A stretch of 31,776 nucleotides of DNA from a virus. Below the pieces are notes generated by a model, which worked only from the letters and a program-made list of their open reading frames with translations, made no database searches and had not been told where the DNA came from. Within the stretch, counting starts at the first letter, position 1. Each line of letters starts with the position of its first letter. The stretch is taken from IMG/VR virus record IMGVR_UViG_3300012944_000045, positions 1 through 31,776 of that record, one strand, 5' to 3'. Of this stretch, positions 2,285-24,633 are shown in pieces. The translations under genes were made by a program, and so were the position numbers.

Positions 2285-4492
2285 TCACTGCGCTGCTGGC
2301 ACCGGTGTAGGTGGAGCGACCGCCGGATTCTGCCCTTGCGTCGTTTTAGGTCCGCCAAGTTGCGTAGGCGGCTGGGGTGCGGCAGGCATGAGCGGTGGCT
2401 CCATCAACATCTGCGTCTGCATGACGTGCTCGAACAAGGCTTGCTTGGCTTCGGGCTGCCACTTTTTAAAGTCCTGCGATTTGACCTGATCGGCATGGAA
2501 GTAGAGATGCACCGCGTTATCTTCCAGCGGCTCGTGCATGGGGGTGATTTGCGGAGCAATGTAGGGTTGTCCCGGTTGGCCCGTTCCCATCTTGAACATC
2601 TGATTTTCCAGACGCGCGTTGGTGGCGTCTTTGTTGAAGCTCTGCATCATTCCGGTTTCGCCGAACAGCTCGTAAGCTCGTTGCCGGACAGCGGGGTCGT
2701 TGATGTCGAGCGCCCCCTTGTCGAACATGGTCATCATTTCCTGACGTAGTTCGTCTTTAGTGCGCGGCAAGCCGTGATCGGAGGCTACCCAGTCCACGGT
2801 GTCGTCCAACTTGGCCGCCATAAAGGCGCGAATTTCTTCTTCGCGATCGTTGCCGAGAATCTGGGCCAATTGTTCAAAGGTGTAGTACTTCTGCAAGAAT
2901 AAGACCGCTTTACGCAGCGAGTCCCGCCAGAAATAGCGCCAGTTGGCGGCGGGTTTCGAGAACATTAACTCTGCCTGCGAGCGCAACTGCTGAATCGCGG
3001 AGGCGGCGGTGATCGCGCCTTCCTGTTGCCCTCTTACCGCATTGACTGCCATCGAAATGTTCTGGAATTCGGCGTGCAGGCTCTCGCGCTGTTTGTAAAC
3101 CCCTTCATCCAGTTTCCCGGCGCCCATGCGGTGTGGAGCTTCGGTCTCAGGGTTGAGCTTGCGGTATTTGATGATCTTGTCGGCCCGGCCTGTGATCTCG
3201 GATACGATGGAATCCGCGTCCACCACCACGGGATCGACCGCACTCACCATGGCGTGCAGCTTAATCAGGGCTTCGTAGGCATTGTTCTCGCGTTGGATTT
3301 CTACGCAATCGAAGGCCGTCGTCCGGGGAAAGAAGATCGTCGGCAGGTCGAGGTACTTCGCCATAGTGAACGGATGCGCCGGGTAGTCCCACGGGTTGGT
3401 TTTCGCGGCCTCGTCGTTGATGACCGCGCAATAGAACCCGTCCGGGTGGTCTTTCACCTTCTTCGGCGGGACATACATCTCCAGCACCATGCAGGAATCT
3501 TTTACCTGCAAACTCGACGACGAATAGCCTGTGTACCAGAAGTTGAGCGCGTGCTCGTAGGTCACCGAGTAGCCGTCCGGCCAAACCGCGTCGGGCGAAG
3601 CCTCGAAACCATTGAAGCCAAAGAAAATGTCATCCAGCGTGTGTCGCTGCGCCCACAGGAAAAAGGGCGAGTCGTCCATTGACGTGGAACCGGCGCGGGG
3701 AAAGGCGTGCAGCATGTTGCCGATGTCCATGGTGACTTCGTTCTCGCTTACGTCATCCATTTGCGGCTGCCCTAGCTCGTCCATTTGCGGCTGCATCATC
3801 TCGGTAGGTTGTGGGGTGACCGGGTTGCAGCAGTCGGGGCAGAATTTAGGCGCTTCGGCATCTGTAGCAGGGCTTTGCGTGTATTTGTCGCAGACATCGC
3901 ACTGGTAGCCCATGGCGGGCTGGATGGCTTGCTTCGCCTGTTGGCCCAGTTTATTTTTGCGGACGCGCAGAATCGTGAACACGCCGCCTTCCAGGACAAA
4001 CAACTGAGCAGCCAAGCCAACTTTATCCGCTTGCTCGCCCTGTTGATGCTTGAGCCCTTCTTTGACAATAAAGTAATCCACTAGATCGCAGCACACCTCG
4101 GCTACGATGTGCGCGGTCGGGTTGTCTTGCTTCTTGGGTACGGCCTCGACTTCCGGCAGAGCCGAGAAATTCGAGATGACCGCATCCATGGTGGGAGAGA
4201 AGCGGTTGATCCGCGGGCGAGGCACCCAATCGTCGGATGGTTGTTGCGGCTGCCAGACTTTTCTTGCGTCGTCCCAGTCAATCCAGCTCTGGTTCGCGTA
4301 GAACAAAAGCGACTGCCAGATGCTTTGGTGGATGACCACATAGGCGTTTTTGAGATCGTTCCATTTGTCCTGAACGAACTGGAGTGCGCCCGCCGCGTCA
4401 ACGCCCTGCGCTTCGCCCGCGGCCGGAGATGCGCCAGGCTTAGGCGGACCTCCGGCGAACAGGCCGCGCACCGCTTGGAGAAGACCGCCCAA
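2285..4492 (-). CDS. Portal protein with embedded zinc-ribbon motif
   Basis: This 735-residue protein fits the size of P22-like podovirus portals, the dodecameric ring at the packaging vertex. Residues 45-110 (KNAYVVIHQSIWQSLLFYANQSW, then RPRINRFSPTMDAVISN) match the typical portal N-terminus, in which a nucleotide-binding-like tryptophan/asparagine segment is followed by R-x-N-R. C198-x2-C201 and C218-x2-C221 form a zinc-ribbon-like insert, followed by an 8-residue duplication (QPQMDELG/QPQMDDVS). The C-terminus is Pro/Gln-rich. Translation starts at TTG one base after the upstream TAA, with no clear Shine-Dalgarno, so coupling to the upstream gene is likely. Neighbours on both sides are head genes. 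Confidence 0.85.
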   Translation of the reverse strand: MGGLLQAVRGLFAGGPPKPGASPAAGEAQGVDAAGALQFVQDKWNDLKNAYVVIHQSIWQSLLFYANQSWIDWDDARKVWQPQQPSDDWVPRPRINRFSPTMDAVISNFSALPEVEAVPKKQDNPTAHIVAEVCCDLVDYFIVKEGLKHQQGEQADKVGLAAQLFVLEGGVFTILRVRKNKLGQQAKQAIQPAMGYQCDVCDKYTQSPATDAEAPKFCPDCCNPVTPQPTEMMQPQMDELGQPQMDDVSENEVTMDIGNMLHAFPRAGSTSMDDSPFFLWAQRHTLDDIFFGFNGFEASPDAVWPDGYSVTYEHALNFWYTGYSSSSLQVKDSCMVLEMYVPPKKVKDHPDGFYCAVINDEAAKTNPWDYPAHPFTMAKYLDLPTIFFPRTTAFDCVEIQRENNAYEALIKLHAMVSAVDPVVVDADSIVSEITGRADKIIKYRKLNPETEAPHRMGAGKLDEGVYKQRESLHAEFQNISMAVNAVRGQQEGAITAASAIQQLRSQAELMFSKPAANWRYFWRDSLRKAVLFLQKYYTFEQLAQILGNDREEEIRAFMAAKLDDTVDWVASDHGLPRTKDELRQEMMTMFDKGALDINDPAVRQRAYELFGETGMMQSFNKDATNARLENQMFKMGTGQPGQPYIAPQITPMHEPLEDNAVHLYFHADQVKSQDFKKWQPEAKQALFEHVMQTQMLMEPPLMPAAPQPPTQLGGPKTTQGQNPAVAPPTPVPAAQ
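3756..3794 (-). repeat. 24-base tandem duplication inside portal gene
   Basis: TCCATTTGCGGCTGC occurs at 3756-3770 and 3780-3794, 24 bases apart. It encodes a repeated QPQMD(E/D) block right after the zinc-ribbon motif of the portal. It keeps the frame and probably arose by slippage. Confidence 0.8.
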
Positions 4493-6470: not shown

Positions 6471-6959
6471 TTAGGTGTTGGTGCTCACCGGAGGCGCTCC
6501 ATACTTTCCGCCTCCGCCGGTTGGTTTGGCTCCCATCGCCGCCCGCTTGAACCGGCCTGCGATCATACGATAGCTAGCCCCTGAGGTGTTGCCCGCTCCG
6601 GGCTTGGGATCGGCGTGAGGGTAGCTGGGAACGCCCTGTTGTCCGCTCTTGCCGAACTGCCGCTGTACTTGCAGGTTGCCGCGCTGTGGACTTCCGCCAT
6701 GTCCAGGGATACGGGTTTGAGGAGTCATGGACCCGATGTTTCGCCCGTCGCGCGACGCTGGGTTGCCGGAACTGGAGCGCCCTCTGCCCATGGTTCCCCG
6801 CGCTGGCCCGTTCCCTTTCTGCCCGAAGCCGCCGCGCTGGGCCTGTGGAATCTGCTTGGGAACATGGCGCAGGCCTCCACCGCGGTTGGGATCGGGAAGG
6901 TTGTGGCGGCTGTCATTGCCGGGTACGTCCATCATGGCGGGGAATCTGGGTGTGACCAT
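6471..6959 (-). CDS. Gly/Arg-rich disordered basic protein
   Basis: A 162-residue protein rich in Gly, Arg, Pro, Gln and Asn with almost no hydrophobic core (for example RGTMGRGRSSSGNPASRDGR). Only RMIAGRFKRAAMG near the C-terminus looks helical. GAGGT lies upstream of the ATG at a normal distance. The composition suits a nucleic-acid-associated or internal virion protein. It sits just downstream of the terminase and a 63-residue basic protein. No family was recognised. Confidence 0.58.
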   Translation of the reverse strand: MVTPRFPAMMDVPGNDSRHNLPDPNRGGGLRHVPKQIPQAQRGGFGQKGNGPARGTMGRGRSSSGNPASRDGRNIGSMTPQTRIPGHGGSPQRGNLQVQRQFGKSGQQGVPSYPHADPKPGAGNTSGASYRMIAGRFKRAAMGAKPTGGGGKYGAPPVSTNT

Positions 6960-10122: not shown

Positions 10123-10296
10123 CTACGCACCCTCTCCTGAAATAGAGCATTCCGGGTCCACTGCCCCACATCGGTCAGGCGTGGTGAGTTTTTCAACTTC
10201 TTTTGCGGAGTAGAAGACATGGCTATCGGTGGGATTGTCGCACCAGAAGATGAAATCGTTGTCGGATAAGGGGCAGCCGCAACGTGGGCATTTCAT
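10123..10296 (-). CDS. Small zinc-ribbon protein
   Basis: A 57-residue frame beginning MKCPRCGCPLSDNDFIFWCD and ending in ISGEGA before TAG. The ATG overlaps the upstream stop as ATGA, the coupling used throughout this operon. C3-x2-C6-x-C8 and later cysteines (WCDN, RCGAVDPEC) suit a zinc ribbon. The 150 bases after it up to 9972 hold no convincing gene, only purine-rich sequence on the plus strand. Confidence 0.6.
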   Translation of the reverse strand: MKCPRCGCPLSDNDFIFWCDNPTDSHVFYSAKEVEKLTTPDRCGAVDPECSISGEGA

Positions 10297-12141: not shown

Positions 12142-12820
12142 CGATCCCCCCAACCTCAACGAAGTTCTTTCCGTGATCCCATCCGAAGCCAGCGTCCTGG
12201 CCATTCAACGGGCACCCGAGCTGGTCCTGGCCGAAGCTGTCCGGGCCGCGCAAGCCTTGAAGGACGTGATCGACAAAAAGCCTCAGCAACTCAAGTTCAA
12301 CGGTAAGACCTATCTCCAGTTTGAGGACTGGCAAACTCTCGGCCGATTTTATGGAGTAACTGCGGTGGCCCGTTCCACGCGCTACGTTGAGTACGGAGAT
12401 GGCGAATATGCGGTGCGCGGATTTGAAGCCTCCGCAGAAGCGTTGCTGGTTGGGAACAACCAGGTCATCAGCCGCGCCGAGGCGATGTGCCTTGACGACG
12501 AACCGAAGTGGGGATCGCGCCCGAAGTATGAATGGCGCAACAATAAGCGCACGCAAGTGGGGATGGAGCCAGTGCCGCTCTTCCAGCTCCGCAGCATGGC
12601 CCAGACTCGCGCCTGCGCCAAAGTTTTGCGCAACGTTCTCGCTTGGGTTGTCGTGTTGGCTGGCTACGCACCGACGCCGGCGGAAGAGATGGACGGAGAA
12701 TCCACTGAGCAGCAGTTAGTCCAGCCACCGCGCCGCAAACAGCCGGAAAATGCCGATCCAGAGGCCGAGTGGAGTTCGTTCTCTTCGCAGCCGCCTACCC
12801 CGAGAAAGAAACGCGCATGA
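12119..12820 (+). CDS. Annealase-like (RecT/Erf-type context) phage recombination protein
   Basis: A 233-residue protein starting at ATG 12119 behind AAAGGAG. It contains FNGKTYLQFEDWQTLGRFYG, an alternating strand region (TRYVEYGDGEYAVRGFEASA), EAMCLDDE, and the distinctive LRSMAQTRACAKVLRNVLAW followed by VVLAGYAPTPAEEMDG. That block marks a widespread phage family found beside exonucleases and suspected to act in single-strand annealing or ssDNA binding. The C-terminus is Pro/charged and disordered. The immediate downstream neighbour is a PD-(D/E)XK nuclease, which supports a two-component recombinase analogous to lambda Exo/Beta. The family is recognised by motif only. Confidence 0.65.
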   Translation: MATAPPLNDPPNLNEVLSVIPSEASVLAIQRAPELVLAEAVRAAQALKDVIDKKPQQLKFNGKTYLQFEDWQTLGRFYGVTAVARSTRYVEYGDGEYAVRGFEASAEALLVGNNQVISRAEAMCLDDEPKWGSRPKYEWRNNKRTQVGMEPVPLFQLRSMAQTRACAKVLRNVLAWVVVLAGYAPTPAEEMDGESTEQQLVQPPRRKQPENADPEAEWSSFSSQPPTPRKKRA

Positions 12821-13431
12821 TCGCCGCCGCCCCCTTCACGTTTGAGGAGCAAGGTCACATCTACCGCGTCAACGGTGTGACCTTACCTTCAGTGACTCAG
12901 GTCTTGAGCATGATCGGATTGGACGATTACGCGGGAGTTCCATTCCGCAATCTGGAACGGGCGCGGCAGATCGGCAACGCCGTCCACCAGGCCTGCGAGT
13001 TTATTGACGATGAATCCCTAGACAGTGATTCTGTTGATCCTCTGATCTCAGGCTATGTCGAGGCTTACATCCGCTTCCGCATGGAGAACTGCTTTAACCC
13101 AGAGAAGATCGAGCATCGTGCCATCGGCGAATCCCGGAGCCTGCGTTATGGCATGTGTGTTGACCGCATCGGCTATTTCGGCGAAGAGCTGGACGCCTGC
13201 ATCGTGGACTTGAAAACCGCGGCAAAGCCTTCCCCGGCCTGGCCCATTCAAACCGCGGCCTACGCGCACGGACTCGGCAACTTTGACGACTACCGGCGCA
13301 TGGTGGTGCATCTGGCCAAAGACGGAAGCTATAAAATCCACCGGTACGAGCAGCGGCGCGATTTGAACTTGTGGAACTCCGCTCTAGAAATCGCGCACTA
13401 TCGGATCGAGAACGGGGCGAAAATCCGATGA
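12817..13431 (+). CDS. PD-(D/E)XK exonuclease (RecB/Cas4-like)
   Basis: A 204-residue nuclease starting at ATG 12817, overlapping the annealase gene by four bases (ATGA). Motifs in order: GNAVHQACE (H57, E61), YGMCVDRIG (D116), IVDLKTA (D131 and K133, the D-x-K core) and IQTAAYAHGL (Q145 and Y149, motif IV). This is the arrangement of RecB-family exonucleases that resect double-stranded ends. The N-terminal VTLPSVTQVL segment is typical of phage members. It most likely supplies single strands for the protein encoded just upstream. Confidence 0.78.
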   Translation: MIAAAPFTFEEQGHIYRVNGVTLPSVTQVLSMIGLDDYAGVPFRNLERARQIGNAVHQACEFIDDESLDSDSVDPLISGYVEAYIRFRMENCFNPEKIEHRAIGESRSLRYGMCVDRIGYFGEELDACIVDLKTAAKPSPAWPIQTAAYAHGLGNFDDYRRMVVHLAKDGSYKIHRYEQRRDLNLWNSALEIAHYRIENGAKIR

Positions 13432-15558: not shown

Positions 15559-15933
15559 CTACGACGCGGTGGAGCTGGTGAGTTCCTCGCGGGTCCCTTC
15601 CCCATCGCAGGGTTGCTGTTGGTTGGACTCGGGAGGTTCGACCGAGCGCACATAGTCAATCACTTGCGTAATCGTCACTCCCCCAAACATAACTCCGTCA
15701 CAGAGTGCGGTAAGAATCGTTCTGTATTGATGTGGGGTATCCGTGAACCGCGCGATAGTTGGGGGCGTTGCCCATTCCTCCATCCAGGGCCACCTTGTGA
15801 GAGCTTCTCTATTATTGAAATTCGTCTTGCCCACCGCATGGCAGGCGATCCCGAGAAGGCATGTGTTCCAACTGTGATTCGTCGGTTGCTCTCCCACGAT
15901 GCTTCCCAACAAAATCGCATCACTGAGTTTCAT
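15559..15933 (-). CDS. Hypothetical protein of leftward block
   Basis: A 124-residue protein starting MKLSDAILLGSIVGEQPTNH. The first half contains hydrophobic segments with CLLGIACHAVG, the middle is Trp/Pro-rich (RWPWMEEWATPP) and the C-terminus is acidic. The layout (LSDAILLGS...A.....F....) is shared with short phage proteins of unknown role that begin similarly. It stops at TAG. The preceding gene's TAG lies 75 bases upstream. Confidence 0.58.
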   Translation of the reverse strand: MKLSDAILLGSIVGEQPTNHSWNTCLLGIACHAVGKTNFNNREALTRWPWMEEWATPPTIARFTDTPHQYRTILTALCDGVMFGGVTITQVIDYVRSVEPPESNQQQPCDGEGTREELTSSTAS

Positions 15934-16007
15934 CTCTCACCACCCTTCTCCCGGATTGCGGGCCGGGGACCCGGAATGAACTTACCAACAGTTGGGGCGC
16001 GTAGAAT

Positions 16008-20417: not shown

Positions 20418-20485
20418 TTTTCTACGCCGCACAACTGTTGGTGAATGCATCCGGGGTCCCTGCCCGTAAAACTCAGGGGGGAAAG

Positions 20486-21355
20486 GTGGTAGGCGAGTTG
20501 AAGGAATTTCGCATCTTGAATCTTGGGGCCGGAGTGCAGAGCACGGCGTGCTATCTGCTGGCTGAAGAGTGCCGCATGTACGGGGAAGATGTCATTGATT
20601 GCGCGATTTTTGCCGACACTGGCGAGGAGCCAGTTGCGGTCTATCAGCATCTCGCGTGGCTCCGCAACCGTGGAACTATTCCGATTCTTGACCGCACGCG
20701 GGGCAGGTTGGGCGAGGATTTAAAGAAAGGGCAGAACGCGACCAGGCAACGATTCGCATCCATCCCGGCGTTTACATCGGAAGTAGAAGGCCAGAAAGGC
20801 GGGATGACTCGCCGCCAGTGCTCGAAAGAATACAAGGTCGAAGTCATCGAACGAGCCATTCGCCGCGAAGTGCTTGGCTTAAAACCTCGGCAAAGAATCC
20901 CTGCCAGTGTCCACGTCTTTCAGTACTACGGTATCTCGCTTGACGAAGCTGGCCGCGCCGGACGAATCGCCGCACGCGCCAAAGAGCACAAGTGGCTCAC
21001 GGTAAAGTTCCCACTCTTGAAACTCGGCTGGACACGCGCGGACTGCATTGATTTTCTGGCTGACCGCGTTCCTCACGAAGTACCGAAATCGGCTTGTGTC
21101 TTCTGCCCTTACCACTCCGACGCCGAATGGCTCAACATCAAAGCGGTACCGGAAGACTGGAAGCGCGCGGTTGAGATTGATTCGGCCCTGAGAACGACCG
21201 GCTCAGTAGCGAACCGCCAGATGTCGCAGAAGATGTATGTACACCGCTCCTGCCTGCCTTTGACCCAGATTGAATTCAACCCTAAGCCCACGCCGCGAGA
21301 ATTCCAAACAAATCTGGCATTCAACTATGAGTGTCAAGGGGTATGTGGAAACTGA
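20486..21355 (+). CDS. PP-loop ATPase of the PAPS reductase/DndC-like superfamily
   Basis: A 289-residue protein from GTG 20486 (GGGGGG upstream; a TTG at 20438 or 20498 is also possible). LGAGVQST (13-20) is the PP-loop that binds ATP, and FADTGEEPVAVYQHL follows as in PAPS reductases. Cysteines in RRQCSKEYK, SACVFCPYHSD and the terminal YECQGVCGN could carry an iron-sulfur cluster or sulfur. This phage family is widespread with unsettled function; relatives reduce PAPS, thiolate tRNA or act in DNA phosphorothioation (DndC). The next genes are two DNA methyltransferases, so a nucleic-acid modification role is attractive but inferred. Confidence 0.72.
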   Translation: MVGELKEFRILNLGAGVQSTACYLLAEECRMYGEDVIDCAIFADTGEEPVAVYQHLAWLRNRGTIPILDRTRGRLGEDLKKGQNATRQRFASIPAFTSEVEGQKGGMTRRQCSKEYKVEVIERAIRREVLGLKPRQRIPASVHVFQYYGISLDEAGRAGRIAARAKEHKWLTVKFPLLKLGWTRADCIDFLADRVPHEVPKSACVFCPYHSDAEWLNIKAVPEDWKRAVEIDSALRTTGSVANRQMSQKMYVHRSCLPLTQIEFNPKPTPREFQTNLAFNYECQGVCGN

Positions 21356-21531
21356 TGACCGACCCTCTACTCTTCCTCCGCGTCCTCCTCAAGTGCTCCC
21401 TGCTGACTGGGATAGGGCCGGGGATAGTGCTGGGGTTGCTCTACGAGTGGTGGATCTCGCGGCGGATTATCAAGCAAGACGATAAGGTGATTGCGTTCCC
21501 GCAGGTCGAGAAAAAGAAGAAGGCGGCATGA
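21355..21531 (+). CDS. Small membrane protein
   Basis: A 58-residue protein starting MTDPLLFLRVLLKCSLLTGI, one base overlapping the upstream stop (TGATG). A single long hydrophobic stretch (about residues 4-30) is followed by a basic tail ending VIAFPQVEKKKKAA. The tail's coding sequence is partly repeated after the next gene. It ends with an ATGA overlap into the methyltransferase gene. Confidence 0.58.
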   Translation: MTDPLLFLRVLLKCSLLTGIGPGIVLGLLYEWWISRRIIKQDDKVIAFPQVEKKKKAA

Positions 21532-21974
21532 CGCGGATCTATTCAACTCCGCAGGCGATGTACGACAAACTGAATCTCGAATTTTCCTTTGTGACTGATC
21601 TTTGCGCCGATGAAAGCAATGCAAAGTGTGTTAGCTGGCTGCCTCGGGATCTTGGGTTGGACTGGCGTGGACGTGGAGTAGGTTTTCTGAATCCGCCTTT
21701 TGGCCGGGAAATTTCGCACTGGTTAGCTAAAGCTGTGAGCACTAGGCGCAAGATCGTCGCAGTTGTACCGGGACGGACGAATCCTCCTTGGTGGCATGAC
21801 TATGTGATGAAGGCCGCAGAGATCCGGTTCGTTCCGCGTAAGGTTTCATTTCGATCTTCGGATGGACATAAAGGCGTTCCGAGCTGGGGCGTTGTGGTTG
21901 TAGTGTTCAGGCCGGGGCATAGAGGACTGCCGTTTTGCACGAGTTGGGATTGGCGCTGATTGCGTTCCCGCAGG
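21488..21974 (+). repeat. 18-bp direct repeats bracketing the adenine methyltransferase gene
   Basis: TGATTGCGTTCCCGCAGG is present at 21488-21505 and 21957-21974, 469 bases apart. The first copy codes for VIAFPQ near the end of the small membrane protein. After the second copy the same reading (LIAFPQEDSARRKVA, stop at 22001-22003) continues to a GTGA overlap with the next gene. The layout suggests the methyltransferase gene was inserted with duplication of the neighbour's 3' end. Confidence 0.8.
21528..21959 (+). CDS. Phage N6-adenine DNA methyltransferase (Dam family)
   Basis: A 143-residue protein beginning MTRIYSTPQAMYDKLNLEFS, then FVTDLCADESNAKC and GFLNPPFGREISHWLAKAV. STPxxxYxxLxxEFxFxxDxCA...NxKC followed by N-P-P-F (55-58, motif IV) is the signature of the short phage Dam-like family, which methylates adenine from S-adenosylmethionine. 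Motif I is atypical, as usual for this family. Later VVVVVFRPG is a core strand. It likely protects phage DNA from restriction or marks it for packaging. It is bracketed by 18-bp repeats. Confidence 0.78.
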   Translation: MTRIYSTPQAMYDKLNLEFSFVTDLCADESNAKCVSWLPRDLGLDWRGRGVGFLNPPFGREISHWLAKAVSTRRKIVAVVPGRTNPPWWHDYVMKAAEIRFVPRKVSFRSSDGHKGVPSWGVVVVVFRPGHRGLPFCTSWDWR

Positions 21975-21999
21975 AAGATTCTGCCAGGAGGAAAGTGGC

Positions 22000-22872
22000 G
22001 TGAAGCCTTTGGTCGTTGATCTCTATTCCGGTTTGCACGGCTGGTGCGAAGGTTTTGTCGCGGAAGGCTATTGCTGTGTGGCTTTTGACATCGCCGACAT
22101 GTGCAAGCTGGTAGGAGCGCGGCGCCCAAAGAATGTGCGGCTGATTTTGCGGGACGTGACCAAGCTCAATGGTGCGGAGCTCGTTGCAGAGTTCGGAGTC
22201 CCTGTCGTGTTCGTCGCTTCCCCGCCCTGCCAAGAGTACAGCTACATGGCGATGCCGTGGAGTCTGGCGAAAGAGCGGATGCGGAAGTACCAGTCGGGCG
22301 AGTTGAATCTGGAAGATTTGACGCTGCTGTTCGACACCTGCTTTCGCATCCAGCGCGAAGCCTGCGAAGCGGCCGGTAGATACATCCCATTGATTGTGGA
22401 GAACGTCAGAGGAGCGCAGAAGTGGGTAGGGCGAGCTCGTTGGCACTTTGGATCGTACTTCTTGTGGGGTGACGTACCGGCGCTGATGCCGACGACCTTC
22501 AGTGCTTTCAAATCAAGCGGAATGAATTGGAGCGATCAGACGAAGCACGGTCAGGACTTCACCCGCATTGCTGGAAGGCAGGCTGCAATCAAGAACGACG
22601 GCGGCTCATGGTTCGCAGTCGCGCACAACACAGAAAGCGGACACAGCAAGAACCCCGTCAACAGGACAAAGGGAACAGGCGGGAGTTGGTTTACGCCGGA
22701 CCAAACCGACCGAGTACAGGGCCACTGGCGCGAATCGGGATGCGTGGCACGCTGTTACAACTCCAAAGATGCCAGGCGCAAAGCTGCTTCTGCTGCTATC
22801 GCCAAGATTCCTTTCCCCCTTGCGCAGTACATTGCCCGAGTTTTTAAACCGGCAGAGGAGCAAGCCGCATGA
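22000..22872 (+). CDS. C5-cytosine DNA methyltransferase
   Basis: A 290-residue protein from GTG 22000 behind AGGAGGAAA. It has VDLYSGLHGWCEGF (motif I, SAM binding), SPPCQEYSYMA (motif IV with catalytic C77), PLIVENVRGAQKWVG (motif VI, E-N-V) and, at the C-terminus, AKIPFPLAQYIARVFKP resembling motif X. It is shorter than bacterial enzymes (about 330-400 residues), as in many phages, with a small target-recognition region between 175 and 260. It probably guards phage DNA against host restriction. It is coupled by ATGA to the next gene. Confidence 0.8.
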   Translation: MKPLVVDLYSGLHGWCEGFVAEGYCCVAFDIADMCKLVGARRPKNVRLILRDVTKLNGAELVAEFGVPVVFVASPPCQEYSYMAMPWSLAKERMRKYQSGELNLEDLTLLFDTCFRIQREACEAAGRYIPLIVENVRGAQKWVGRARWHFGSYFLWGDVPALMPTTFSAFKSSGMNWSDQTKHGQDFTRIAGRQAAIKNDGGSWFAVAHNTESGHSKNPVNRTKGTGGSWFTPDQTDRVQGHWRESGCVARCYNSKDARRKAASAAIAKIPFPLAQYIARVFKPAEEQAA

Positions 22873-23267
22873 ATCAAGACTTATTTTCTACGCCTTGCTT
22901 GCCTGAGCCAGAGCATTCCGGGTCCCGGCCCGCATTCAGTGCCGAAGTGGTGAGTCCGATGAGCGAAGACGAAAAGAGCCTGCGCCTGGCCAATCTAGTG
23001 ACGCCTTACGGTGTCGGAACGAGATCCTACAATCGCAGTCCGGAAAAACGTGAGATGGATCGGCAAAGAGCGGAAGCCACAGCCGAGCACAAGGCAGAAA
23101 CAATCCTCCTCCCCCTGACCTGCACCTGCCTGCAATCCCCTCACCCTCACGACCTGAGCCTGCACCGCAAGATCCGCGACGAAGCTTACAATCCCCGCCG
23201 TAAAAGGGAATGGCCCTGGAGCTTATGCTTGAGTGAGCGGGTGGAAGAGAGCACGGAGCGCGGATGA
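22869..23267 (+). CDS. Phage protein with CTC-HPHD motif
   Basis: A 132-residue protein starting MNQDLFSTPCLPEPEHSGSR. The N-terminal half looks disordered, then LPLTCTCLQSPHPHDLSLHR and REWPWSLCLSERVEESTER follow. The Cys/His cluster may bind zinc. Similar C-x-C...HPHD...WPWS arrangements occur in short phage proteins of unknown role. Its last codons (RVEESTER) are repeated at the end of the next gene. Confidence 0.58.
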   Translation: MNQDLFSTPCLPEPEHSGSRPAFSAEVVSPMSEDEKSLRLANLVTPYGVGTRSYNRSPEKREMDRQRAEATAEHKAETILLPLTCTCLQSPHPHDLSLHRKIRDEAYNPRRKREWPWSLCLSERVEESTERG

Positions 23268-23436
23268 GAAGCGATTTACAACTCGCGCTGCTGAATCTCC
23301 ACGAGGTTTGTTTGCTAATACGGGAGTCGCAATCTGTTTACTGGCCATGGAAGAAGAATTTCGTGATGCCGTGGGACAAGTTTTACGAAGCCATAGAACG
23401 AGTCGAGCGGCTGAGGCGGGTGGAAGAGAGCACGGA
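23237..23436 (+). repeat. 21-bp direct repeats at the ends of two successive genes
   Basis: A 21-bp sequence starting GCGGGTGGAAGAGAGC and ending ACGGA lies at 23237-23257 and again at 23416-23436, 179 bases apart. Each copy encodes RVEESTE just before a stop that overlaps the next start as ATGA. The segment between them is the 61-codon gene at 23264. Confidence 0.82.
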
Positions 23437-23449
23437 AAGGGAACGATGA
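23264..23449 (+). CDS. Small protein with duplicated RVEESTER tail
   Basis: A 61-residue protein starting MRSDLQLALLNLHEVCLLIR, then WPWKKNFVMPWDKFYEAIER and RVEESTERER. It is helical with a central Trp-rich stretch. Coupled to both neighbours by ATGA. The tail matches that of the preceding gene at DNA level, so this gene may be a cassette acquired between two copies of a repeat. Confidence 0.58.
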   Translation: MRSDLQLALLNLHEVCLLIRESQSVYWPWKKNFVMPWDKFYEAIERVERLRRVEESTERER

Positions 23450-23607
23450 GTGGCGATTTTGACGAAGACGATCTCGACTACGAGGACGATTACTACCGCG
23501 ATCCCTTTGAGGAAGCGCTCATGAATTGCGGACTGGTAGGCAACACCGGCCTGTGTACGAAAGCGGGTTCGGAAGAGTGCGATTGGGATTGTCCGTTTAA
23601 TCGGTAG
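23446..23607 (+). CDS. Small acidic Cys-rich protein
   Basis: A 53-residue protein starting MSGDFDEDDLDYEDDYYRDP, very acidic, ending NTGLCTKAGSEECDWDCPFN and R before TAG. The C-terminal C...GSEECDWDCPF pattern is a recurring phage small-protein signature, probably metal-binding. The natural-looking end shows that TAG functions as a stop here. Confidence 0.66.
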   Translation: MSGDFDEDDLDYEDDYYRDPFEEALMNCGLVGNTGLCTKAGSEECDWDCPFNR

Positions 23608-23644
23608 GTTAAGTTCCGCTCTCTGAGGGACGAAGGAGGGAAAC

Positions 23645-23926
23645 GTGGAAGATGAAAAACAGTGGCTGATCGAGATCGGCTCATCCGTCCATGAGATTAA
23701 GGCCGCAACTCGCGAAGACGCTATCCTCCAAGCTTGGAAACTTCACAAGGGCACCGTGGGAGTGATAATCGTTACCCGTCGCCTTGGAGAGTCAGACGAC
23801 GATTCAGTTCCGTGGCGAGTGGTAGATGTGCTTTATCGAATTCTGGGCGATTATCCCGAGGCGAAAAGAGTGGATGACTTCTGTGTGAGTGCTGGAATCC
23901 CTTCGGTATTGCCGCCGATGGCCTGA
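23645..23926 (+). CDS. Hypothetical protein
   Basis: A 93-residue protein from GTG with AAGGAGG six bases upstream. It starts MEDEKQWLIEIGSSVHEIKA and forms a strand-helix-strand pattern (EIKAATREDAILQAWKLH, VGVIIVTRRLGES) followed by WRVVDVLYRILGDYPEAKRV. No family was recognised. Confidence 0.57.
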   Translation: MEDEKQWLIEIGSSVHEIKAATREDAILQAWKLHKGTVGVIIVTRRLGESDDDSVPWRVVDVLYRILGDYPEAKRVDDFCVSAGIPSVLPPMA

Positions 23927-23941
23927 GCTCGAGGTGCAACC

Positions 23942-24394
23942 ATGACGGATGAGAAGTTGATGTGGGACGCCTTGAATGAAGCGCGTGCCAAGAGCGATCG
24001 TAAGATTGACTCTGAGGATTTTCAGCATGGCTGGAATGCTGCCCACGTCCTCGCTCACCGGGAGGAAGGCGAGCAGTTAGATCGAGATCAGATTACCCGA
24101 GAACTCTTGCAGTATGTTGAGGACTGGAAGCTGGTCAAGCCAAACTGGACGCACGCCGATATCGAGAACCTGCTTAAGTGCTTGGTCATTGATGAACGGA
24201 TGATGTCCCGCATTCCCGACTTCGCTCACCGGGAGGAAGGCGCGGACCCAGAACCAAGTCCCACAGCCTTCAGCACTCACAAGCCGCACCATAGTGCGGC
24301 CTTGAGACACCCTGGCTGCTTGGCCTGCGCAAAACAAGAGGGTTACGAAATCGGCTGGAAGGCCGCGCTGGCTACGCGGAACTCCTCCAAATGA
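23942..24394 (+). CDS. Mosaic phage protein with repeat-flanked insertion
   Basis: A 150-residue protein starting MTDEKLMWDALNEARAKSDR. DFQHGWNAAHVLAHREEG, then a 57-residue segment ending in a second AHREEG, then HPGCLACAKQEGYEIGWKAA. The outer parts resemble small phage proteins with FxxGWxAA and GxEIGWKAA motifs. The segment between the two AHREEG copies (EQLDRDQITRELLQYVEDWK onwards) is flanked by a 21-bp direct repeat and keeps the frame. The C-terminal TRNSSK is shared with the next gene. CGAGGTG precedes the ATG. Confidence 0.62.
   Translation: MTDEKLMWDALNEARAKSDRKIDSEDFQHGWNAAHVLAHREEGEQLDRDQITRELLQYVEDWKLVKPNWTHADIENLLKCLVIDERMMSRIPDFAHREEGADPEPSPTAFSTHKPHHSAALRHPGCLACAKQEGYEIGWKAALATRNSSK
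24051..24242 (+). repeat. 21-bp direct repeats inside one gene flanking a 57-codon segment
   Basis: A 21-bp sequence (TCGCTCACCGGGAGGAAGG plus CG) lies at 24051-24071 and 24222-24242, 171 bases apart, which is exactly 57 codons. Both copies read AHREEG. Deleting one copy with the segment between would leave an intact shorter protein. Confidence 0.82.
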
Positions 24395-24619
24395 AAAATG
24401 AGCCCCGAGTCGCGATTGTGTTTGATGGGACGGGTTGGTTCGTTCGTCGAGTCCGATTAATCGAGCATGATTTAGACCGGGACGAAAAAGTCTATCGGTG
24501 CGACGAGTCAATAGGAGGGAAATGCCGTTCAGTGACGGAAGCAGTGGATTTGTATGCAAACTGGCGGCGCGACCGGATCGAACGAATCAAAAAGGTGCTG
24601 ACTACGCGGAACTCCTCCA
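24367..24619 (+). repeat. 23-bp direct repeats (one mismatch) at the ends of two successive genes
   Basis: GCTG-G/A-CTACGCGGAACTCCTCCA lies at 24367-24389 and 24597-24619, 230 bases apart. Copies sit at the 3' ends of the genes at 23942 (reading ATRNSSK) and 24391 (reading TTRNSSSGKS), so the second gene lies between them. Confidence 0.82.
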
Positions 24620-24633
24620 GCGGAAAGTCCTAA
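24391..24633 (+). CDS. Small phage protein between repeats
   Basis: An 80-residue protein starting MKNEPRVAIVFDGTGWFVRR, with strands in the first half and a helix SVTEAVDLYANWRRDRIERI before the repeat-encoded tail TTRNSSSGKS. ATGA couples it to the upstream gene. Its TAA overlaps the TAG of the convergent gene in the shared bases CTAA. Function unknown. Confidence 0.6.
   Translation: MKNEPRVAIVFDGTGWFVRRVRLIEHDLDRDEKVYRCDESIGGKCRSVTEAVDLYANWRRDRIERIKKVLTTRNSSSGKS

What the first reader, a model, noticed from the sequence alone, without database searches (positions are those of the whole stretch)
21488..24619. Four direct-repeat pairs of 18-23 bp bracket short gene-sized segments within 3.2 kb
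Four independent pairs (21488/21957, 23237/23416, 24051/24222, 24367/24597) enclose segments of 469, 179, 171 and 230 bases. In three of them the repeat is the 3' end of one gene, copied at the end of, or just after, the next gene. In the fourth the inserted segment is in frame inside one gene. Repeats of this length are not expected by chance so often in so little DNA. The pattern suggests a recurring cassette-gain process acting at gene ends, for instance circular-intermediate or microhomology-driven insertion by the phage's own annealase/exonuclease. I know of no named mechanism that fits all four.
Basis: partly seen in the sequence, partly recalled or inferred. Interest (0 to 1): 0.75.

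Follow-up and report, generated by a model that had tools for sequence, protein, structure and literature searches.

The report
Gene insertions marked by duplicated gene-ends
Four small stretches in this phage are each bracketed by a duplicated 18-21 base piece of a neighbouring gene, mostly of its end, probably the scars of genes spliced in by sloppy recombination; this process was already described in mycobacteriophages and proves common, but four scars in 3.2 kb is unusually dense.

Summary
Each is a private pair; flanks show no further similarity, and the inserts lack terminal inverted repeats, mobile-element genes and promoter/terminator pairs. Removing any bracketed segment restores an intact gene. 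For pair 1 this is telling: after the inserted Dam-like gene lies an orphan tail of the upstream gene, still open and ending in a GTGA overlap with the next gene. Inserts are GC-poor (0.516 versus 0.568).

The same pattern is general: in 158 other phage loci, repeats of 17-24 bp are about 20-fold enriched at gene-size spacing, half the pairs have both copies at gene boundaries (12% expected), and 31 of 32 testable pairs share reading frame. Best explanation: gene gain with one homologous and one illegitimate junction ("tail capture"). Published Island3 gene 68 shows it: its first 67 codons match Arib1's, its end is the tail of gene 67. Pope et al. 2011 described this anatomy. No relative of this region was found, so its direction is inferred. 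A known process, unusually dense here.

The parts
21331..21531 (+). g2, small membrane-type ORF (66 aa); its present tail VIAFPQVEKKKKAA* carries copy 1 of pair 1; ATGA overlap with g3
   Evidence: distant homologue of its N-terminal part in L083 5138-5230
21488..21505 (+). pair 1, copy 1 (18 bp)
21506..21956 (+). insert 1 (451 bp), GC 0.530
21528..21959 (+). g3, Dam-like DNA adenine methyltransferase (143 aa), the inserted gene; its stop codon is the first three bases of copy 2
   Evidence: Pfam PF05869 E=1.3e-15, PHROG 111; C-terminus close to that of homologues, so essentially complete
21957..21974 (+). pair 1, copy 2 (18 bp)
21956..22003 (+). orphan tail (CTG ATT GCG ... GCG TGA = LIAFPQEDSARRKVA*), the likely original 3' end of g2, ending in a GTGA overlap with g4
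   Evidence: sequence; empty-site join restores a 67-aa g2 ORF ending at 22003
22000..22872 (+). g4, cytosine-type DNA methyltransferase; not part of an insert here
   Evidence: PHROG 363 E=4e-8; Pfam PF00145 match below cut-off; relatives L003-L082
22869..23267 (+). g5 (132 aa), tail ...SERVEESTERG* carries copy 1 of pair 2; ATGA overlap with g6
23237..23257 (+). pair 2, copy 1 (21 bp)
23258..23415 (+). insert 2 (158 bp), GC 0.506
23264..23449 (+). g6 (61 aa), inserted ORF whose C-terminus RVEESTERER* is the tail of g5 in the same frame; ATGA overlap with g7
   Evidence: no convincing family match
23416..23436 (+). pair 2, copy 2 (21 bp)
23942..24394 (+). g9 (150 aa), holds pair 3 in frame (AHREEG twice, 57 codons apart) and copy 1 of pair 4 in its tail (ATRNSSK*)
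   Evidence: no relative found
24051..24071 (+). pair 3, copy 1 (21 bp; 26 bp at 92% from 24046)
24072..24221 (+). insert 3 (150 bp, in frame), GC 0.500
24222..24242 (+). pair 3, copy 2 (21 bp)
24372..24389 (+). pair 4, copy 1 (18 bp; 30 bp at 87% from 24367)
24390..24601 (+). insert 4 (212 bp), GC 0.505
24391..24633 (+). g10 (80 aa), inserted ORF whose C-terminus TTRNSSSGKS* is the tail of g9 in the same frame
   Evidence: no family match
24602..24619 (+). pair 4, copy 2 (18 bp)

Best explanation
Each repeat pair is the scar of an insertion into or next to the 3' part of a resident gene. An incoming fragment joined the phage on one side within a short stretch shared with the resident gene's tail (homologous or micro-homologous exchange), and on the other side by an illegitimate join a little upstream of where the first exchange ended. 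The tail stretch between the two joins therefore stayed on both sides of the new DNA. Inserts that give a stop codon and an ATGA/GTGA coupling to the next gene survive, which places the scars at gene ends and, when the new gene lacks its own end, fuses it in frame to the resident tail ('tail capture'). SHOWN: the four pairs, their frames, the intact empty-site joins, the low GC of the inserts, the generality in other phages, and the Island3/Arib1 worked example. INFERRED: that the window's segments are gains rather than survivors of losses elsewhere, and that recombination took this one-sided route here.
For: The repeats are real and far beyond chance. Joining the flanks at any pair restores an intact ORF: g2 ends in a GTGA overlap with g4, g5 ends in an ATGA overlap with g7, g9 shortens by 57 aa in frame, and g9 gains the tail SSSGKS*. 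The inserts' GC is 0.516 against 0.568 (P=0.0009; local P=5e-5), and a gene caller trained on the phage's long ORFs does not call g3, g6 or g10 on the + strand. Similarity essentially stops at the repeat edges and there are no terminal inverted repeats. The pattern is general in 159 loci (2.16 Mb): strong local excess, 51% of pairs with both copies within 35 bp of a gene boundary versus 11.6% for jittered positions (P=2.5e-12), and 31 of 32 pairs in different genes in the same frame versus 70% in chance repeats (P=0.0005). Worked example: Island3 g68 has the first 67 residues of Arib1 gp65, then abruptly a g67-type tail in frame; Brujita has one tail and no g68 (PMC3029335). Wizardviruses differ by whole genes at stop/start junctions with 3-34 bp of shared sequence and a single copy in the genome lacking the gene.
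Against: No relative of this region was found in viral or genome collections, so no empty site is known for the window and the direction is inferred. In the five Wizardviruses, genes missing from a single genome (more simply read as losses) sit at the longer shared stretches (8-34 bp, imperfect), while the two genes found in one genome only show 3-4 bp, so some repeats may serve deletion more than record gain. g6, g10 and insert 3 have no homologues, so their foreign origin rests on composition only. Pair 3 is not at a gene end.
Confidence: 0.6

Rival explanations
1. Symmetric cassette exchange: a circle or linear cassette already carrying the boundary sequence recombines at the matching short sequence in the phage, by a phage annealase.
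For: Gives the same final structure. Short gene-boundary homologies exist in other phages, and a PHROG exonuclease match lies at 12769-13431.
Against: The four repeats share no sequence, so no common cassette end exists. In the Island3 case the donor-type genomes do not carry the second copy after the gene; the right junction cuts inside the gene. No annealase was identified by Pfam.
Confidence: 0.15
2. The repeats are old and the bracketed genes are ancestral; short repeats matter only as substrates for deletion, so relatives without the gene would be losses.
For: In Wizardvirus, genes missing from one genome out of five are bracketed by 8-34 bp shared sequence, more simply losses.
Against: Does not explain where the private repeat pairs come from, the orphan tail with its GTGA coupling to g4, or the low GC of the inserts. 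Identical synonymous positions argue for youth.
Confidence: 0.13
3. Local replication slippage or template switching duplicates 18-21 bp while copying in foreign DNA (target-site-duplication-like), with no homologous side at all.
For: Repeat lengths are similar (18, 21, 21, 18) and edges are sharp. No donor for the window is known.
Against: In the wider sample repeat lengths spread from 16 to 37 bp and decline without a clear peak at one length, and the Island3 case has a homologous side. Frame agreement (31 of 32) is not predicted.
Confidence: 0.08
4. Tandem gene duplication followed by divergence, the repeats being the last conserved patch of paralogues, or shared functional C-terminal peptides.
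For: The copies are in the same reading frame; some pairs in other loci (L045, L054, L060) sit at similar distances from both gene ends and may be paralogues.
Against: In the window, flanks on both sides show no similarity above shuffled sequence in seven of eight comparisons, the eighth being marginal (20 against 19). Repeats are identical at synonymous sites.
Confidence: 0.04

Closest known systems
Island3 gene 68 / Brujita (Pope et al. 2011, PMC3029335)
   Same: An extra small gene right after a resident gene; its last 18 codons copy the resident gene's C-terminus in frame; the relative without the gene has one tail.
   Different: Repeat about 50-60 bp at high but imperfect identity; donor-type relatives are known (Arib1, Malithi, Shipwreck). 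The window has four events in 3.2 kb with 18-21 bp exact repeats and no known donor or empty site.
LRRHood genes 43-46 flanked by 29-bp direct repeats, single copy in other subcluster C1 phages (PMC3029335)
   Same: Repeat lies in a gene end and again upstream of the next shared gene; one copy in relatives (read, not re-measured here).
   Different: Multi-gene 1.35-kb segment, one event; the window has single short genes.
Conserved boundary sequences proposed for phage mosaicism (cited in PMC3029335)
   Same: Short homology at gene ends as a place of gene exchange.
   Different: Those are shared between phages at the same junction; here each repeat is a private pair within one genome.
Start-associated sequences of cluster K mycobacteriophages (PMC3203893)
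   Same: Short repeats close to gene starts in the non-structural half.
   Different: SAS is one 13-bp motif in 11-19 copies per genome; here four unrelated sequences with two copies each.

Membership tests
Gene indel at short gene-end repeats (Island3/LRRHood type) | Direct repeat of a gene end on both sides of an extra gene | tested here: met
   Pairs 1, 2 and 4; pair 3 is inside a gene and does not meet this
Gene indel at short gene-end repeats (Island3/LRRHood type) | C-terminus of the extra gene copies the upstream gene's C-terminus in frame (Island3 form) | tested here: met
   g5/g6 RVEESTE and g9/g10 TRNSS; pair 1 has an orphan tail instead
Gene indel at short gene-end repeats (Island3/LRRHood type) | A close relative without the gene has a single copy | not testable with these tools
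   No relative of the region found; met in Brujita and in Wizardvirus
Transposon / MPME-like element | Terminal inverted repeats and a conserved element body | tested here: not met
   No inverted-repeat ends and four different inserts
Homing endonuclease or intron insertion | Endonuclease gene in the insert | tested here: not met
   Inserts encode a Dam-like methyltransferase or ORFs without convincing family matches
Moron with own promoter and terminator | Promoter before and terminator after the gene | tested here: not met
   No promoter or terminator pair around the inserts; counts not above shuffled sequence (sigma-70-type consensus only)
Start-associated sequence / regulatory repeat | One motif repeated at many gene starts | tested here: not met
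   Each exact repeat occurs twice and the four are unrelated
Integron-type cassettes | Shared recombination site at every cassette end | tested here: not met
   No sequence shared among the four pairs; attC-like folding was not examined

The most novel reading that the evidence does not exclude
Tail-capture insertion is a general, measurable engine that builds the small-gene arrays of phages: genes arrive with one homologous and one illegitimate end, take over the resident gene's 3' end in frame, and leave a short repeat whose divergence could date the event; regions such as this window are hotspots where it acts repeatedly.
Probability: 0.3. Interest if true: 0.6.

Novelty: new member of a known kind. 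Interest (0 to 1): 0.4.

Why it matters
How phages gain the many tiny genes of unknown function in their accessory regions is a long-standing question, and most gene boundaries show no trace of the event. Short private repeat pairs at gene ends are such a trace, they can be counted by computer, and they suggest which gene is the newcomer. The window gives four in 3.2 kb, and the survey here suggests that about one pair per 39 kb can be read in phage DNA of this kind.

Tried and rejected
Chance and composition: rejected by Markov simulation. Transposon-like inserts with terminal inverted repeats: none. Tandem paralogues: flanks essentially not similar beyond the repeats. Moron cassettes with promoter and terminator: none. 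Regulatory repeat family: each repeat is private to its pair. A search for empty sites in relatives of the window failed: methyltransferase relatives share no neighbourhood apart from single hits to g1 and g3, replication-protein relatives L083-L086 share almost nothing downstream except part of g2, g9 gave no relative, PAPS-reductase-like relatives L188-L191 do not hold the other genes, the repeat sequences gave one unconnected hit and none, and genome contigs gave nothing. Truncation of g3 by its junction was looked for, but its C-terminus is as long as that of most homologues, so the model is not strengthened there. A survey for indels among the methyltransferase loci gave mostly variation inside the methyltransferase gene.
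Full report
OBSERVATION. The window is a virus record of 31,776 bases, GC 0.568. Two hundred third-order Markov sequences gave a mean of 0.02 repeats of 18 bp or more at any distance and none within 500 bp.

ANATOMY. g2 (21331-21531) ends VIAFPQVEKKKKAA* in an ATGA overlap with g3 (21528-21959), a Dam-like methyltransferase (Pfam PF05869, E=1.3e-15). After g3 the 18-bp stretch returns: its first three bases are the stop codon of g3, and read in the phase it has in g2 it stays open as LIAFPQEDSARRKVA*, whose stop forms a GTGA overlap with g4 (22000). That is how the old end of g2 would look if g2 once lay directly before g4. g5 ends SERVEESTERG* (ATGA into g6) and g6 ends RRVEESTERER* (ATGA into g7); g9 ends LATRNSSK* (ATGA into g10) and g10 ends LTTRNSSSGKS*. 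In these two pairs both copies are in the same frame. Pair 3 brackets 57 codons in frame inside g9 (AHREEG twice). Joining the flanks at each pair gives an intact ORF in all four cases, with the normal coupling to the next gene in pairs 1 and 2.

WHAT THE INSERTS LOOK LIKE. Their joint GC is 0.516, against 0.568 for random segments of the window (P=0.0009) and 0.554 locally (P=5e-5). A gene caller trained on the phage's long ORFs does not call g3, g6 or g10 on the + strand, the three inserted ORFs. No terminal inverted repeats were found; upstream and downstream flanks of the two copies are no more alike than shuffled sequence in seven of eight comparisons and marginally in the eighth. There is no promoter/terminator pair. 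g3 is about as long as its homologues, so it was not visibly truncated.

SURVEY. I removed tandem and multicopy repeats from 159 non-redundant phage loci (2.16 Mb; window included). Repeats of 17-24 bp fall from about 49 per 10^9 position pairs at 80-300 bp spacing to about 2.4 at 2-4 kb and 1.1 at 4-6 kb. Of 53 pairs of 16 bp or more outside the window, not within a single gene, 51% have both copies within 35 bp of a gene boundary, against 11.6% when positions are jittered by up to 600 bp and 5% for chance-type repeats (P=2.5e-12). Of the 32 local pairs of 15 bp or more that lie in two different genes on one strand, 31 are in the same reading frame, against 189 of 269 chance-type repeats (P=0.0005). 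Gene calls are from a simple caller of my own, checked by eye against the Fugax annotation, and the loci were sampled mostly around two genes, so the figures are estimates. Other loci carry about one pair of 17 bp or more per 39 kb; four in 31.8 kb has P=0.009 and four in 3.2 kb P=2e-6 under a Poisson model that ignores clumping. Only L106, with multicopy and tRNA-like repeats, has more.

EMPTY SITES IN OTHER PHAGES. Five Wizardvirus genomes (Fugax, Valary, Bakery, Arri, SmokingBunny) differ by whole small genes, and several of the indels lie at stop/start junctions with 3 to 34 bp shared by both junctions and one copy in the genome lacking the gene. Genes missing from one genome of the five sit at the longer shared stretches (8-34 bp); the two genes present in one genome only show 3-4 bp. 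With so few cases, and repeats that are imperfect on inspection, this does not settle direction.

WORKED EXAMPLE. Pope et al. 2011 (PMC3029335) reported that Island3 gene 68 shares its C-terminus with gene 67 and that Brujita, lacking gene 68, has one tail; they could not choose between insertion and deletion. I confirmed the structure and found relatives that carry the gene with a different end. In Arib1, Shipwreck and Malithi, gene 68's homologue ends ...HEHEHEGNVFMCPHWIDEPHEHTPTEEE* (one residue differs in Malithi), while in Island3 it runs identically to ...HEHEHEG and then switches abruptly to RYQLAHVRDVAGRKSRRR*, a copy of a gene 67 tail, in frame and followed by the downstream DNA of Brujita. 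So in Island3 the left junction lies in sequence homologous between donor and recipient (gene 67), the right junction is illegitimate and inside gene 68, and the repeat is the resident tail left on the far side. This makes insertion with tail capture the simplest reading of that case. The general idea of one homologous and one illegitimate end is known as homology-facilitated illegitimate recombination in bacteria (de Vries and Wackernagel 2002, seen here only as a reference in PMC2884548).

INTERPRETATION. The window's four pairs have the same anatomy, and the simplest reading is four such insertions in one small-gene array. This is inferred, because no relative of this region could be found.

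NOVELTY. The phenomenon is described (Island3, LRRHood). What this adds is a dense natural cluster, the orphan tail with its coupling to the next gene, the Arib1 comparison that bears on the direction of the published case, and a first count, within these loci, of how often such scars occur. I rate it a new member of a known kind, with moderate interest.

Noticed in passing
window 20418-20503 (+), 15929-16006 (-), 22879-22954 (+), 10136-10159 (+): A dispersed, diverged element of up to about 85 bp (TTCTACGC..CAACTGTTGGT..CATTCCGGGTCCCCGGCCCGCA..GTGGTGAG) recurs, in whole or part, mostly near gene boundaries. It may be an older boundary or regulatory sequence; no copies were found in the other loci held.
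   Followed up: partly
L013 5973/6877, L035 5787/5969 and 5973/6882, L067 5997/6803: In three other phages the homologue of the window's g4 methyltransferase is itself bracketed by 17-18 bp repeats at its start and end, so this gene family may move by the same route.
   Followed up: partly
L182, L183, L186 versus L180: Island3 gene 68 is a chimera: 67 codons identical in protein to Arib1/Shipwreck plus a gene 67 tail. This bears on the direction question left open in PMC3029335 for that gene.
   Followed up: yes
L014, L030, L047 and others, about 6480-6680 (L030 about 3790-4015): The cytosine methyltransferase family varies by internal segments of roughly 80-230 bp at one variable region, perhaps its target-recognition part.
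   Followed up: no
L106 5083-7656: Seven short repeat pairs including a tRNA-like T-arm sequence; possibly tRNA-related repeats rather than gene insertion scars.
   Followed up: no
L189 4821-5245: Four overlapping repeat pairs with a period of about 144 bp, probably a degenerate tandem array.
   Followed up: no
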